64,000 nucleotides of DNA from Nocardioides caldifontis (GTDB lineage: Bacteria > Actinomycetota > Actinomycetes > Propionibacteriales > Nocardioidaceae): NCBI RefSeq assembly GCF_008087345.1, contig NZ_ML701735.1:433010-497009 (forward strand), in the 5' to 3' direction. Under the pieces are notes generated by a model. The model saw only the letters and a list, made by a program, of their open reading frames with translations. It did not search any database and had not been told where the DNA came from. A program made the position numbers and the translations under genes. Of this stretch, positions 6,316-64,000 are shown piece by piece. Each line of letters opens with the position of its first letter. Positions within the stretch are counted from its first letter, which is position 1.

Positions 6316-7400
6316 GGGCGCCCCTCCGCCTCGACGGCCCGCAGGTCGGCCTCGTCGAGCAGCGCGTCGAGCCGCTCCTGGACCTCGTCGGCCGCCTCCA
6401 TGATCGACATGTGGCCCACTCCGGGGAGCTCGAGGAGCTCGGAGCCGGGGATCCGCGAGTGCAGCTTGCGGGAGTGGCCGATCGAGGTGAGCTTGTCCTC
6501 GGTGCCGCACACGATCAGGGTCGGCACCCGGGTGAACGCCTCGACGACGTGGAACTTGTCGAGGGCGTCGAACTGCGGGATGAACTCGACCAGCACCTCG
6601 AGCGGCGTCCGGTGGATCATCTCGTCGACGAAGGCCACGTGCGCCGCGGGCACCCGACCCGAGCCGAACGCGAACTGCCGCACGAGCCAGAGCCCCAGCG
6701 CCGACCGGTTCTCCCGCACCAGCTCGAGGAGCCGCGCGCGTTCGTTGGCGACCAGCAGCCCCCGCTCGAGCGCCCGCTTCCCGAGCGCGTCGGGCACGTG
6801 CTTGGCCACGATCTTGTGGGTGCGCTGGCCGCCGGCGGTGGTGGAGACCAGCCCCACCCCGACGACCTTGTCGCCGAAGAGCTCGGGGTGCTGCTCGGCG
6901 AGGGCGACGATGGTCATGCCGCCCATCGAGTGGCCGACGAGGACGACCTTCTCGTCCGGCTCGGTGAGGGTGGCGAGCACCTGCTCGAGGTCGTGGCCGA
7001 GCTGGTCGATGGTGGCGTTCTCGGTCGACGAGCGCTCGCTGCGGCCGTGGGACCGCTGGTCGTAGAGGACGATCCGGCGCCGGCCCCGCAGCGCCTGGCG
7101 CTGGAAGTGCCAGCAGTCGAGGTTGAGCGAGAAGCCGTGGACGAGCACGACCGTGACGCGCTCGCGGCCGGCGTCGCCCGCCGAGCCGTACGGCGCGCGC
7201 TCGTCGACCTCGGCGTGCAGGAGCACCTCGTCGTCGGCCTTCACCTCGTGCACGGTGCCGCGCAGGGAGCCGAGCTCGGGCTCCCCCGCGAGCGCCTGGG
7301 CCAGGCGCCGCTGACCCAGCCACCGGTCGACCAGGTAGCCGCCCGTGGCGACGGCGAGCCCGGAGCCCGCCAGCAGCCCTGCGGTGCGTCTGCGGCTCAT
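6312..7400 (-). CDS. Alpha/beta-fold hydrolase, membrane-anchored
   Basis: 362 aa. The N-terminus (RRRTAGLLAGSGLAVATGGYLV) looks like an uncleaved anchor. The hydrolase fold has oxyanion-side VLVHGFSLNLDCW, nucleophile elbow GHSMGG, acid CGTEDKLTS and catalytic His GVGHMSIME, so the triad is complete. ATG 7400 overlaps the alr stop by 4 nt, and its own stop overlaps the GNAT-TsaE start, so it is translated within the operon. The substrate is not predictable; lipases and esterases of this type are often found between alr and tsaE in actinobacteria. Confidence 0.88.
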   Translation of the reverse strand: MSRRRTAGLLAGSGLAVATGGYLVDRWLGQRRLAQALAGEPELGSLRGTVHEVKADDEVLLHAEVDERAPYGSAGDAGRERVTVVLVHGFSLNLDCWHFQRQALRGRRRIVLYDQRSHGRSERSSTENATIDQLGHDLEQVLATLTEPDEKVVLVGHSMGGMTIVALAEQHPELFGDKVVGVGLVSTTAGGQRTHKIVAKHVPDALGKRALERGLLVANERARLLELVRENRSALGLWLVRQFAFGSGRVPAAHVAFVDEMIHRTPLEVLVEFIPQFDALDKFHVVEAFTRVPTLIVCGTEDKLTSIGHSRKLHSRIPGSELLELPGVGHMSIMEAADEVQERLDALLDEADLRAVEAEGRP

Positions 7401-46203: not shown

Positions 46204-46569
46204 GAGGGGTCCTTCCGGTGGGCCCGCATGCTAGCGAGAGGGCTCCGGTTTCCGCCCGCCCAGGGGCGGGAAGGAGTAGCCTTCGAGACACCTCGCCGCC
46301 CGGCGCACCGTCGTACCAGCGCCTGCCGGCGGCCCGCAGCGAAAAACTGCGTAGCCCTCCCCGCCGATCGACCCGGCCCGATCATGGCTCAGCTGAGCCG
46401 TTCTCGCGAGATCGGCGACGAACGTCCGAACCAGCGTGTTGCGCGCGTCACCGGCTGGGTACCTTCTCGGCCAGCCGGGACGCCAGCCCCCTGACGTCGC
46501 GGCCCACACCTGGGAGTCGGGTCCGAGTCGCACACCCTCGGGCCGTCGCAAGTCTGTTGGGAGGCAGCC
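46204..46569. other. 366-nt gene-free region with palindromes and a structured leader
   Basis: No gene found. It contains two adjacent perfect palindromes, GGCTCAGCTGAGCC (46386-46399) and TCTCGCGAGA (46402-46411); a hairpin CCGGCTGG/CCAGCCGG (46451-46458/46471-46478); a stem CGGCCC/GGGCCG (46500-46505/46540-46545) enclosing a TGGGAG; and a short stem CTG/CAG (46554-46567) with TTGGGAGG in its loop, just before the TTG start at 46570. It may hold an operator and a regulatory 5' leader for the next gene. Confidence 0.6.
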
Positions 46570-48297
46570 TTGATCCGTCGCAGCATCCTCGCCTCTGCCT
46601 GTGCAGCCGCGGTCGTCGCACCGTTCGCCGCCTTCGCCGTCTCGGCGGGCGCCGCACCACAGGCCCTCGACCTCGGCCAGCTCGTGCCGAAGTTCCTCAT
46701 CTGGGACAGCCACATCACCGGCTCGAGCGGTCTCGCGGCCAGCAGCCGCGACAGCAACCTCTACTTCACCCACAACGACAAGGGCGACAGCGCCCGACTG
46801 TTCGCGATCGACACGCGCGGTGGCACCCAGGCGGTCCTCAACGTGCGCGGCGCGACCAACGTCGACTGGGAGGACGTCGCCTCCGGGCCGAACCGCACCC
46901 TCTGGGTGGGCGACGTCGGTGACGACCTGCGCAACCGGCCGAACATCGCGGTCTACAAGCTCAACGAGCCCGCGACGTTCGAGGAGGACATGACCGTCAG
47001 CGCGACGAAGTACACCTTCACCTACCCCGACGGCCCGCAGAACTCCGAGGCGATCCTCGTCCACCCGAAGTCCGGCCAGGTCTACGTCGTGACCACCGGG
47101 CTCCTCGGCGGCGCGATCTACAAGGCTCCTGCGAGGCTCAGCACCTCCCGGGCCAACAAGCTCACCAAGGTGGCCACCGCACCGGCCGGCGTGAGCGGCG
47201 GCGCCTTCGCCCCCGACGGCGCTCAGTTCACCCTCGTCACCGGGCTGTCGACGCACACCTACACCACCGTCGGCGGCACAGCGAAGGTCGGGCTGAAGCC
47301 GGTGCTCCTCGACGGCGAGTCGGTCACCTACTCGCGGGACGGCACGAAGCTGCTGATGGGCAGCGAAGGGCTGCTGAGCCCGGTGTACGAGGTGCCGATC
47401 GACGGGTCGACCCCGACTCAGACGCCGACCCCGACGCCGACCCCGACGCCCACCCCGACCCCGACCCCGACCAAGACCCCGACCCCCACGCCGACCCCCA
47501 CCAAGACCCCGACCCCCACGCCGACGCCCACCAAGACCCCGACCCCCACGCCGACCCCGACGCCGTCGCCGGACCCGAGCGGCTGGCAGCTCCAGTACGA
47601 CACGAAGTTCAACAACCTCGACGGCTGGACGATCTACAACAACCAGACCCAGAACAACGACAACTCGATCAACATGGCGAAGAACGTCACCGCCGGGTCG
47701 GGTGGGCTGAACATCGCCGGCAAGCGCGAGTCCGGCTACAACCGGCCGTTCACCTCCGGCGAGATCGTGGGACGCAGCGGCAAGCTGGTCGTGCCGAACT
47801 ACTTCCGCGCCGAGGTCACCGGCACCTTCCAGGACCTCTCCGGGATCTGGCCGTGCCTGCTGTGGTTCCGCCCCGAGAACGCCAGTGACGGCGAGATCGA
47901 CGTCATGGAGTGGATGGGCGGCATGTGGTCCGGCGACCAGAAGCGCGTCGCGATCACGATGCACAACGAGTACGGCGCCACGCAGGACTCGATCAAGAAG
48001 CCGCTGATCCTCAAGAACCACTCGTGGTTCAAGCCGGAGGCCGAGCACACCTACACGATCGAGAAGGTCCCGGGCTCGATCACCGTCTGGGTCGACGGCC
48101 GGAAGCTGAGCACCTTCACCGCGGCCGACAAGGGCTGGTGGAACCGGATCATGGAGGTCAAGGACCGCACGTGGTACCCGCGGATCACCCTGCAGATCGG
48201 CCAGGGCTCCAAGACGAAGGTGGTGCCGAACCCGGACTCCTCCTTCAAGTCCACCAACGTGAAGGTGACCTCCTTCAAGCTCTGGACCCAGAAGTAG
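46570..48297 (+). CDS. Secreted beta-propeller / GH16 glucanase hybrid
   Basis: 575 aa in three parts. A signal peptide (about 1-29, ends SAGAA) precedes a propeller-like domain (30-278: [41 protein letters not shown]) paralogous to the protein at 61942. A Thr-Pro linker follows (281-337). The C-terminal GH16 domain (338-575) has catalytic motif E442-I-D444-V-M-E447, so it should cut beta-1,3 or beta-1,3-1,4 glucans or similar polysaccharides outside the cell. TTG start with GGGAGG 5 nt upstream, in a hairpin loop. Confidence 0.88.
47410..47579 (+). repeat. Low-complexity Thr-Pro coding repeat
   Basis: About 170 bp of C-rich ACCCCG-type units encoding alternating Thr-Pro, with [10 protein letters not shown] repeated three times near its end. 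A flexible interdomain linker in the protein, and a likely slippage site in the DNA. Confidence 0.9.
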
Positions 48298-60804: not shown

Positions 60805-60819
60805 GGGACCAAAGACCCG
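60805..60819 (+). promoter_or_regulatory. GGGACCAAAGACCCG motif upstream of a secreted-protein gene
   Basis: Near-palindrome with arms GGGAC and the GTCCC-like end, matching 63709-63721 at 12 of 13 positions over GACCAAAGnCCCG. It also lies in a GGGCGGG/CCCGCCC hairpin. The shape resembles a DosR/NarL-type operator, but no such site is proven. Confidence 0.4.
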
Positions 60820-60827
60820 CCCACACA

Positions 60828-60875
60828 TGACGTTGGGAGCGTCACCGGCGGACCTCGAGAGACGTTGGGAGCGTC
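60828..60875 (+). promoter_or_regulatory. Tandem hairpins with TTGGGAG loops before GTG 60881
   Basis: GACGTTGGGAGCGTC occurs twice. The first copy extends to TGACG/CGTCA (60828-60844). The second (60861-60875) has a 4-bp stem and ends 5 nt before the start codon. The loop GGGAG of the second copy is the Shine-Dalgarno. Confidence 0.65.
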
Positions 60876-60880
60876 CCCCT

Positions 60881-61819
60881 GTGCTGTTGAAGCGTGTCGG
60901 CGTGCTCGCCGCCCTTTTCCTCCTCCTCACCCTGGTGCCCGTGGTGTCGATCGGCGACCAGCCGCCGGCCTCGCAGGCCTCCGCCGCGTGCCGCAAGGCG
61001 CCGAAGTGGCAGAACCAGACGACCAAGTTCGGCATCGGGCTCAGCACCCGTGGCCACAGCAACCTCCAGCAGGACCTGCAGTCCGAGCAGAAGCGGTTCG
61101 GCACCCGGATCCCCGTGATCCGCACCTGGGACACCGGGATGCCGCGCAGCTACGCGTGGGAGGAGCGGTCGCAGTGGTTCGGCAAGCGCTGGATCGTCAC
61201 CTCGCTCAAGCTCGACCCGAAGCAGGTGAACTCCGGCCGCCACGACGCCGCCCTGCGCAACTACTTCAAGACCGCGCCGCGCAAGCAGCCGATCTTCTAC
61301 AGCCTCTTCCACGAGCCCGAGGACGAGGTGAAGCGCGGCGAGTTCACCCCCAAGGAGTTCCGCCAGGCGTTCCGCCGGGTCGTGCGGATCGCGGCGTCGT
61401 ACTGCCGCGACAACCTGTACCCGACGCTGGTGCTGATGAGCTGGACCGCCGACCCGAGGTCGAAGCTCGACTGGCGCGACTACTACCCCGGCCCGCGGTT
61501 CGTCTCCGTGCTCGGTTGGGACCCCTACAACGGGGCGAACGGCGACGCCAAGAGCTACCGCACGCCGCGGGAGATCTTCGGCCCCGTGGTGCGGGCCTCG
61601 AAGGCGGCCGGCAAGCGTTTCGGCGTCGCCGAGACGGGCACAGTGCGCATACCCGGTGACTCCGCCGGCACCGGCCGCGCTGCTTGGCTGCGGGCGACGG
61701 CGAAGTACCTGGACAAGCACAACTCAGCCTGGGTCACGTACTTCCAGTCCACGACCAAGGGCGACTTCGAGCTCCGCGACCAGCCGAGCGTCGCCGCGTG
61801 GCGCGAGGCGATGCGCTGA
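60881..61819 (+). CDS. Secreted GH26-like glycoside hydrolase
   Basis: 312 aa. Signal peptide LLKRVGVLAALFLLLTLVPVVS. The fold resembles GH26-like (beta-mannanase) TIM barrels: KFGIGLSTRG start, acid/base in YSLFHE (Glu145), VLGWDPYN (about 210-217) and a possible nucleophile in FGVAETG (Glu251). It probably cuts an extracellular polysaccharide; the substrate is unknown. I choose GTG 60881 because GGGAG lies 9 nt upstream and the signal peptide follows directly; ATG 60827 has no RBS. Confidence 0.78.
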   Translation: MLLKRVGVLAALFLLLTLVPVVSIGDQPPASQASAACRKAPKWQNQTTKFGIGLSTRGHSNLQQDLQSEQKRFGTRIPVIRTWDTGMPRSYAWEERSQWFGKRWIVTSLKLDPKQVNSGRHDAALRNYFKTAPRKQPIFYSLFHEPEDEVKRGEFTPKEFRQAFRRVVRIAASYCRDNLYPTLVLMSWTADPRSKLDWRDYYPGPRFVSVLGWDPYNGANGDAKSYRTPREIFGPVVRASKAAGKRFGVAETGTVRIPGDSAGTGRAAWLRATAKYLDKHNSAWVTYFQSTTKGDFELRDQPSVAAWREAMR

Positions 61820-63765: not shown

Positions 63766-63847
63766 AGCCGGACGCCTCGGGCTCCGGCTCGAGAAGGCCC
63801 CGGGTGGGAGCCAAGGGGCCCGGCACACCACTGTTGGGAGGCAGTCC
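63766..63847 (+). promoter_or_regulatory. Structured 5' leader of the last gene
   Basis: Three hairpins: AGCCGGA/TCCGGCT (63766-63772/63783-63789); GGCCCC/GGGGCC (63796-63801/63815-63820) with TGGGAG in its loop; and ACTG/CAGT (63830-63833/63842-63845) with loop TTGGGAGG, 2 nt before GTG 63848. The last loop is the Shine-Dalgarno. Confidence 0.55.
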
Positions 63848-64000
63848 GTGCGCAAGATCTGCGTGAGCATCGCCGTCGCGGCGTGTGCAGCGGCCACCAC
63901 GCCGCTCGTCACGTCGGCGGCCGTCACCACGACCTCGTCGTCGCCTGTGGTGCAGCCCGCGGCGAGGGTCGCGTCGTACTCGTTGGACCGGGTCATCAAG
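63848..64000 (+). CDS. Secreted propeller-family protein, 5' part only
   Basis: The first 51 residues before the window ends. Signal peptide KICVSIAVAACAAATTPLVTSAA, then SYSLDRVIK, which matches EYSLDRRI at the mature start of the 61942 protein. It is therefore likely the third member of this family. GTG 63848 with GGGAGG 6 nt upstream. Confidence 0.65.
   Translation, partial: MRKICVSIAVAACAAATTPLVTSAAVTTTSSSPVVQPAARVASYSLDRVIK

What the first reader, a model, noticed from the sequence alone, without database searches (positions are those of the whole stretch)
60828..60880. Tandem hairpins exposing a UUGGGAG loop as the ribosome-binding site
GACGTTGGGAGCGTC occurs twice before GTG 60881, each a hairpin with GGGAG in the loop. 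The leaders of the secreted genes at 46570 and 63848 show the same plan: an upstream stem enclosing TGGGAG, then a CTG-TTGGGAGG-CAG hairpin 2-5 nt from the start. Three secreted-protein genes share a design in which the Shine-Dalgarno sits in a loop and is preceded by a decoy copy. This suggests control by an RNA or protein that recognises the loop, or a ribosome standby site.
Basis: partly seen in the sequence, partly recalled or inferred. Interest (0 to 1): 0.75.

Follow-up and report, generated by a model that had tools for sequence, protein, structure and literature searches.

The report
Ribosome-site hairpins on secreted polysaccharide enzymes
In an actinobacterium and two relatives, genes for secreted polysaccharide-cutting enzymes carry a small RNA hairpin that displays the ribosome-binding site in its loop, often with a second copy just upstream; it looks like a docking site for a regulator, most likely a small RNA with matching C-rich loops, but the regulator is not proven.

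Summary
GACGTTGGGAGCGTC occurs at 60829-60843 and 60861-60875; CTGTTGGGAGGCAG at 46554-46567 and 63831-63844. Genome-wide, UGGGAG-loop hairpins sit directly before five secreted carbohydrate-active genes. A model trained on these found three more in a congener (G002), all before secreted polysaccharide lyases; a variant lies in a third species (G004). Inspected best hits in other relatives were inside genes. Stems differ with paired changes while the loop is fixed. A second TGGGAG lies 23-29 nt upstream in four leaders from three species (43 nt in a fifth; p about 3e-8). Most leaders are not unusually stable as a whole, so support comes from covariation and position. CsrA is an unlikely reader: G002 lacks csrA but keeps the hairpins; csrA-bearing congeners show none. 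G002 has, in an exopolysaccharide locus 8 kb from one target, a terminator-ended RNA with two CCUCCCA loops, exactly complementary to its three leader loops. Best reading: SD-in-loop leaders silenced by a C-rich-loop sRNA, as RNAIII does with rot. An ANTAR protein (PdtaR, present) and a reader-free RBS remain rivals. No such sRNA was found in the third of the window genome examined.

The parts
60829..60843 (+). Upstream hairpin H1, GACG-UUGGGAG-CGUC (extends to U-A, 5 bp)
   Evidence: Sequence; stem score 5; loop-to-loop spacing to H2 32 nt
60861..60875 (+). SD hairpin H2, GACG-UUGGGAG-CGUC, 5 nt before GTG 60881
   Evidence: Sequence; model hit 26.4 bits (training member)
60805..60818 (+). 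GGGACCAAAGACCC, palindromic box like GGGAC-N4-GTCCC with 1 mismatch; possible transcription-factor site
   Evidence: Such boxes (at most 1 mismatch) lie within 220 nt of 5 of 9 leaders, 0.017 expected per leader
60881..61819 (+). Secreted GH26-like protein (312 aa)
   Evidence: PF02156, E 5.7e-5; signal-peptide-like start
46511..46516 (+). Upstream TGGGAG copy, 43 nt before the SD hairpin; local stem weak
46554..46567 (+). SD hairpin CUGU-UGGGAG-GCAG, 2 nt before TTG 46570
46570..48297 (+). Secreted beta-propeller (phytase-like) + GH16 protein (575 aa)
   Evidence: PF13449, PF00722
63797..63820 (+). Upstream hairpin GGCCCC..GGG-UGGGA-GCC..GGGGCC enclosing TGGGAG at 63805-63810
   Evidence: Folds locally; loop-to-loop spacing 30 nt
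63830..63845 (+). SD hairpin ACUGU-UGGGAG-GCAGU, before GTG 63848
63848..64000 (+). Start of secreted beta-propeller + GH16 protein (610 aa; continues beyond the window, L056 6858-8687)
   Evidence: PF00722

Best explanation
The leaders are cis-regulatory RNA elements. A short hairpin shows the Shine-Dalgarno as a UGGGAG(G) loop, and in about half of the leaders an identical loop sits about 30 nt upstream. The loops are docking sites for a trans-acting regulator that competes with the ribosome. The most likely regulator is a small RNA with C-rich (CCUCCCA) loops that pairs loop-to-loop with one or both hairpins and blocks translation, as S. aureus RNAIII does with rot mRNA. The regulated set is secreted polysaccharide-active enzymes. 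Shown: the hairpins, their place, covariation, paired spacing, and in G002 a terminator-ended RNA-like locus with two perfectly complementary loops. Inferred: transcription of that locus, pairing in the cell, repression, and that the window's own organism has such an RNA.
For: Fixed loop with varying paired stems: 97.9% of cells paired, 4 of 5 pairs changed on both sides, sliding controls far lower (partly circular). Position: every G002 hit of a model trained on G000 that lies at a gene start is before a secreted polysaccharide lyase; inspected best hits of other genomes are inside genes. Paired loops: 5 of 9 leaders, p 2.9e-8, loop spacing 29-34 nt in four leaders of three species. In G002 a three-hairpin RNA with terminator (z -4.8) at C1:4169046-4169165 (+) has two CCUCCCA loops complementary to UGGGAGG of all three G002 leaders; predicted duplexes -14 to -18 kcal/mol against about -10 for the 16S tail. 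Its best, sub-threshold Rfam matches are anti-SD sRNAs ar14 and sX13. It lies beside a sugar transferase gene in an exopolysaccharide locus, 8 kb from target 4177501. Precedent: RNAIII-rot (PMC2837412), B11/6C (PMC10470900).
Against: No equivalent C-rich-loop RNA was found in the about one third of the window genome that was read. Expression of the G002 RNA is unproven; the hairpins could be only a terminator, and the candidate was found after the fact. 60881, C5_229 and G004 loops end in C or A and match CCUCCCA over one base fewer. Four of nine leaders have one hairpin only. SD sequences are complementary to any C-rich loop by nature.
Confidence: 0.42

Rival explanations
1. ANTAR-type control: the dual hairpins are bound by the response regulator PdtaR (REC-ANTAR), which occludes the RBS held in the second stem-loop.
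For: Actinobacterial ANTAR-target RNAs are dual hexaloop hairpins with 2-25 nt linkers, 37% of them over the RBS or start codon (PMC8164766). REC-ANTAR protein present in G000, G002 and G003. Loop position 4 is G, the contacted base; A1 makes no specific contact in EutV (PMC8934654).
Against: The conserved A1 is U in all ten aligned hairpins (C5-C9 region); 4 of 9 leaders lack a second hairpin with this loop; the loop is invariant over all six positions, more than ANTAR needs; the protein is equally present in G003, which has no such leaders.
Confidence: 0.15
2. CsrA represses these mRNAs by bridging two GGA loops, and the RNA after sigA is a CsrB-like sponge.
For: csrA present in the window genome. 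GGA at loop positions 3-5 of a hexaloop over the SD, dual sites, short stems as in CsrA ligands (PMC7652899). Intergenic RNA with UUGGGAG, GGGGAG and UUGGGAG loops.
Against: G002 lacks csrA with neighbours cspA and phoU intact, yet has three leaders. G001 and G003 have csrA but no leader hairpins. The A of ANGGA is missing. The sponge candidate has no substantial match in relatives.
Confidence: 0.12
3. No trans-acting reader: the hairpin simply holds or tunes a strong Shine-Dalgarno (standby site, stability or temperature effect).
For: The loop is the SD itself, and most leaders have only the one hairpin near the start. Hairpins are weak enough for ribosomes to open.
Against: The non-SD upstream copies keep the same loop; hairpins with this loop or its complement occur in non-coding RNAs; the element is confined to one enzyme class, while TGGGAG is not a common SD here.
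Confidence: 0.2
4. Shared descent only: a leader plus signal-peptide cassette copied between enzyme genes, with no selected RNA function.
For: 46570 and a G002 lyase share about 29 nt across hairpin and start and similar signal peptides, with unrelated enzymes behind; three leaders belong to paralogues.
Against: The upstream leader is unrelated while the hairpin is kept; other leaders have different stems with the same loop.
Confidence: 0.08

Closest known systems
S. aureus RNAIII with rot and coa mRNAs (C-rich hairpin loops pairing with SD-bearing loops)
   Same: Target mRNA shows the G-rich SD in a hairpin loop; in rot two loop-loop contacts, one in the 5'UTR and one at the RBS, both needed (PMC2837412). 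Same design as H1 + H2 here.
   Different: Different phylum; here the partner RNA is only a candidate, and is short (about 120 nt) rather than RNAIII.
6C / B11 sRNA of mycobacteria (two C-rich loops binding ribosome-binding sites)
   Same: Actinobacterial, two C-rich loops, represses through the RBS without a known chaperone (PMC10470900).
   Different: B11 targets are described as G tracts near the RBS, not paired SD-in-loop hairpins; the G002 RNA does not match any Rfam family at threshold.
Alphaproteobacterial ar14 ('cuckoo') anti-SD sRNAs
   Same: Three hairpins, anti-SD motif in loops, variable stems (PMC10746234); best Rfam match of the G002 RNA (19.1 bits, below the 58.8 cut-off).
   Different: Only two of three loops carry the motif, shorter motif CCUCCCA, different phylum, score far below threshold.
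ANTAR-target RNAs
   Same: Dual hairpins, hexaloop possible, RBS in the second stem-loop, G at loop position 4 (PMC8164766).
   Different: A1 absent; invariant loop; several leaders with one hairpin.
CsrA/RsmA sites
   Same: GGA in hairpin loops, one over the SD, short stems (PMC7652899).
   Different: No A of ANGGA; element present where csrA is absent.

Membership tests
RNAIII-type SD-loop / C-rich-loop sRNA pair | SD displayed in a hairpin loop of the mRNA | tested here: met
   Nine leaders; weak stems
RNAIII-type SD-loop / C-rich-loop sRNA pair | Trans RNA with complementary C-rich hairpin loops in the same genome | tested here: inconclusive
   Candidate found in G002; none in the part of G000 read; rest not readable
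RNAIII-type SD-loop / C-rich-loop sRNA pair | Pairing blocks translation in the cell | not testable with these tools
   Needs reporter and deletion experiments
ar14 (cuckoo) sRNA, for the G002 RNA | Rfam RF02344 gathering score | tested here: not met
   19.1 bits against 58.8
6C RNA, for the G002 RNA | Match to an Rfam 6C family | tested here: not met
   No 6C hit up to E 1
ANTAR-target RNA | Two stem-loops with a 2-25 nt linker | tested here: inconclusive
   Clear in 60881, 63848, G004 and G002_4177; single hairpin in four of nine leaders
ANTAR-target RNA | Hexaloop with A1 and G4 | tested here: not met
   Loop UGGGAG: G4 present, A1 absent in all; A1 itself is not contacted by EutV (PMC8934654)
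ANTAR-target RNA | ANTAR protein in the genome | tested here: met
   PF03861 protein in G000; homologues in G002, G003
CsrA target | CsrA encoded in every genome that has the element | tested here: not met
   Absent in G002
CsrA target | ANGGAN loop | tested here: not met
   UGGGAG: GGA in place, A replaced by U
Known Rfam family, for the leaders | Match at gathering threshold | tested here: not met
   Only a tRNA in the window; nothing credible for two leaders

The most novel reading that the evidence does not exclude
A previously undescribed post-transcriptional regulon in Nocardioidaceae: secreted exopolysaccharide enzymes carry paired SD-in-loop hairpins that are switched by loop-loop pairing with a cuckoo-like C-rich sRNA encoded in the exopolysaccharide locus, without CsrA, possibly tuned by G-rich-loop decoy RNAs such as the one after sigA.
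Probability: 0.3. Interest if true: 0.68.

Novelty: new variant of a known kind. Interest (0 to 1): 0.52.

Why it matters
Few sRNA or leader-RNA regulons are known in Actinobacteria outside mycobacteria and Streptomyces (general knowledge). A compact set of nine leaders with a fixed loop, variable stems and a candidate partner RNA is a directly testable system for Csr-independent control of secreted polysaccharide enzymes, and repeats the RNAIII-rot design in another phylum.

Tried and rejected
CsrA as reader: attractive at first (csrA present, GGA loops, sponge-like RNA), rejected as main reading because of the G002/G001/G003 distribution. The RNA after sigA as a conserved sponge: its loops are not behind sigA in the relatives examined and it has no substantial match elsewhere. 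Rfam identity: none. CebR-type operator TGGGAGCGCTCCCA (recalled from memory; similar palindromes seen in Streptomyces loci L260 and L286): the second half-site is missing in our leaders. The 32545 site: antisense to the start of a ribosomal-protein-like gene, unrelated. Orthologous propeller genes of G001, G003 and G055 lack the hairpin, and none was found at the starts in named Nocardioides or Streptomyces loci. A GH16-domain scan of genome contigs found no relatives. ANTAR search by regular expression failed until more of the genome was read.

Full report
Observation. The window (G000:C2:433010-497009 of a 4.8 Mb genome; family Nocardioidaceae) holds GACGTTGGGAGCGTC at 60829-60843 and 60861-60875, and CTGTTGGGAGGCAG at 46554-46567 and 63831-63844, each just before a gene for a secreted protein. 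The genes encode a GH26 protein (60881) and two beta-propeller + GH16 proteins (46570, 63848). The neighbouring secreted gene 61942 has an ordinary RBS, so this is not a general feature of secreted genes.

Genome-wide. An exact pattern search found 24 GTTGGGAGNC sites. The ones placed as the SD of a secreted gene are 46570, 63848, a third propeller-GH16 paralogue (C5:229653, -) and a GH16 protein (C8:144155, +). All four have stems, against 2 of 19 other sites, the ncRNA site after sigA being set apart (Fisher p 0.0017). In 147 relatives the 14-mer occurs four times; one is in congener G002 before a PL14 polysaccharide lyase unrelated to 46570, with about 29 nt identical to the 46570 leader across the hairpin and start while the rest of the leader is unrelated.

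Covariance models. A model of eight G000 hairpins (R1) found in G002 three sites at the starts of secreted lyases: 558840, 557104 and 4177501 (PF21294 and PF14099). A second model (R2) over 148 genomes gave 8 hits in G000 and 3 in G002. The inspected best hits of other genomes lie inside genes, many on codons reading R-W-E-A. A variant leader, CTGTTTGGGAGCAG with an upstream 10-bp hairpin carrying UGGGAG, precedes a propeller gene in G004.

Structure. In the alignment of ten hairpins UGGGAG is invariant while 4 of 5 stem pairs show changes on both sides; 97.9% of cells pair, and sliding destroys this. This is partly circular, because some rows were found with a paired model; the Fisher test above and the positions of the G002 hits are not. 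Isolated hairpins are weak (-3.5 to -4 kcal/mol), and leader folds are mostly not more stable than shuffles. The G002_4177 leader folds into exactly the two hairpins (z -2.1).

Paired copies. Five of nine leaders have a second TGGGAG within 60 nt upstream (0.012 expected per leader, p 2.9e-8), four of them 23-29 nt before the SD hairpin, from three species. Loop-to-loop spacing is 29-34 nt. Five of nine also have a GGGAC-N4-GTCCC-like palindrome within 220 nt (0.017 expected per leader), reminiscent of LuxR/DosR-type boxes (recalled, not tested). Transcription starts are not known, so copy 1 at 60829 may or may not be in the mRNA.

Reader: CsrA. The genome has csrA, GGA-in-loop dual sites are CsrA-like (PMC7652899), and an intergenic RNA after sigA (L059 7060-7400, minus strand) folds strongly (z -7) with UUGGGAG, GGGGAG and UUGGGAG loops and a terminator-like end. 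But csrA is patchy (31 of 148). G002 lacks it beside intact cspA and phoU yet has three leaders, while G001 and G003 have it and no leader hairpin was found. CsrA is therefore unlikely as the general reader.

Reader: ANTAR. Actinobacterial ANTAR-target RNAs are dual hexaloop hairpins that often overlap the RBS (PMC8164766). A PdtaR-like REC-ANTAR protein is present in G000, G002 and G003. The conserved A1 is absent here and single-hairpin leaders exist. It remains a rival.

Reader: sRNA. A search for paired UGGGAG hairpins in 2 Mb of held sequence found one further strong pair, in G002 at C1:4169046-4169165. Read on the strand that ends in GCCUCUUUUUU it is a three-hairpin RNA (z -4.8) with two CCUCCCA loops, the exact complement of UGGGAGG in all three G002 leaders. 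Its best though sub-threshold Rfam matches are the C-rich-loop sRNAs ar14 and sX13. It lies near a bacterial sugar transferase and a GDP-mannose dehydratase, 8 kb from target 4177501. Predicted loop pairing is stronger than pairing with the 16S tail (tail sequence supplied from general knowledge). RNAIII-rot (two loop-loop contacts, 5'UTR and RBS, both required; PMC2837412) is the same design, and B11/6C shows that C-rich loops act on RBSs in Actinobacteria (PMC10470900).

Verdict. A real, narrowly distributed cis-element with a fixed loop. Recognition of the loop by a regulator is well supported; an sRNA reader is the best specific mechanism, with moderate confidence.

Noticed in passing
L059:7060-7400 minus strand (G000:C4:163059-163399): Strongly folded 340-nt intergenic RNA behind sigA (z -7) with two UUGGGAG loops, a GGGGAG hexaloop and a terminator-like end; no substantial match in 147 relatives. 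Possible decoy RNA.
   Followed up: partly
L343:9046-9165 (+) (G002:C1:4169046-4169165): Cuckoo-like sRNA candidate with two CCUCCCA loops and a U6 terminator beside exopolysaccharide genes.
   Followed up: partly
L060:302-538 minus strand (G000:C15): csrA next to cspA in an actinobacterium; csrA is patchy in the family (31 of 148 genomes) and lost from the same spot in G002.
   Followed up: partly
60805-60818 and upstream of other leaders: Palindromes close to GGGAC-N4-GTCCC upstream of 5 of 9 leaders, resembling LuxR/DosR-type operator boxes; suggests a common transcription factor.
   Followed up: partly
L060:120-330: Tandem repeats of a unit like CGCGCCACGAGGGGCGGCTCAACACCCCAG downstream of csrA; a similar unit stands near the RNA after sigA (L059, about 7000-7080).
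   Followed up: no
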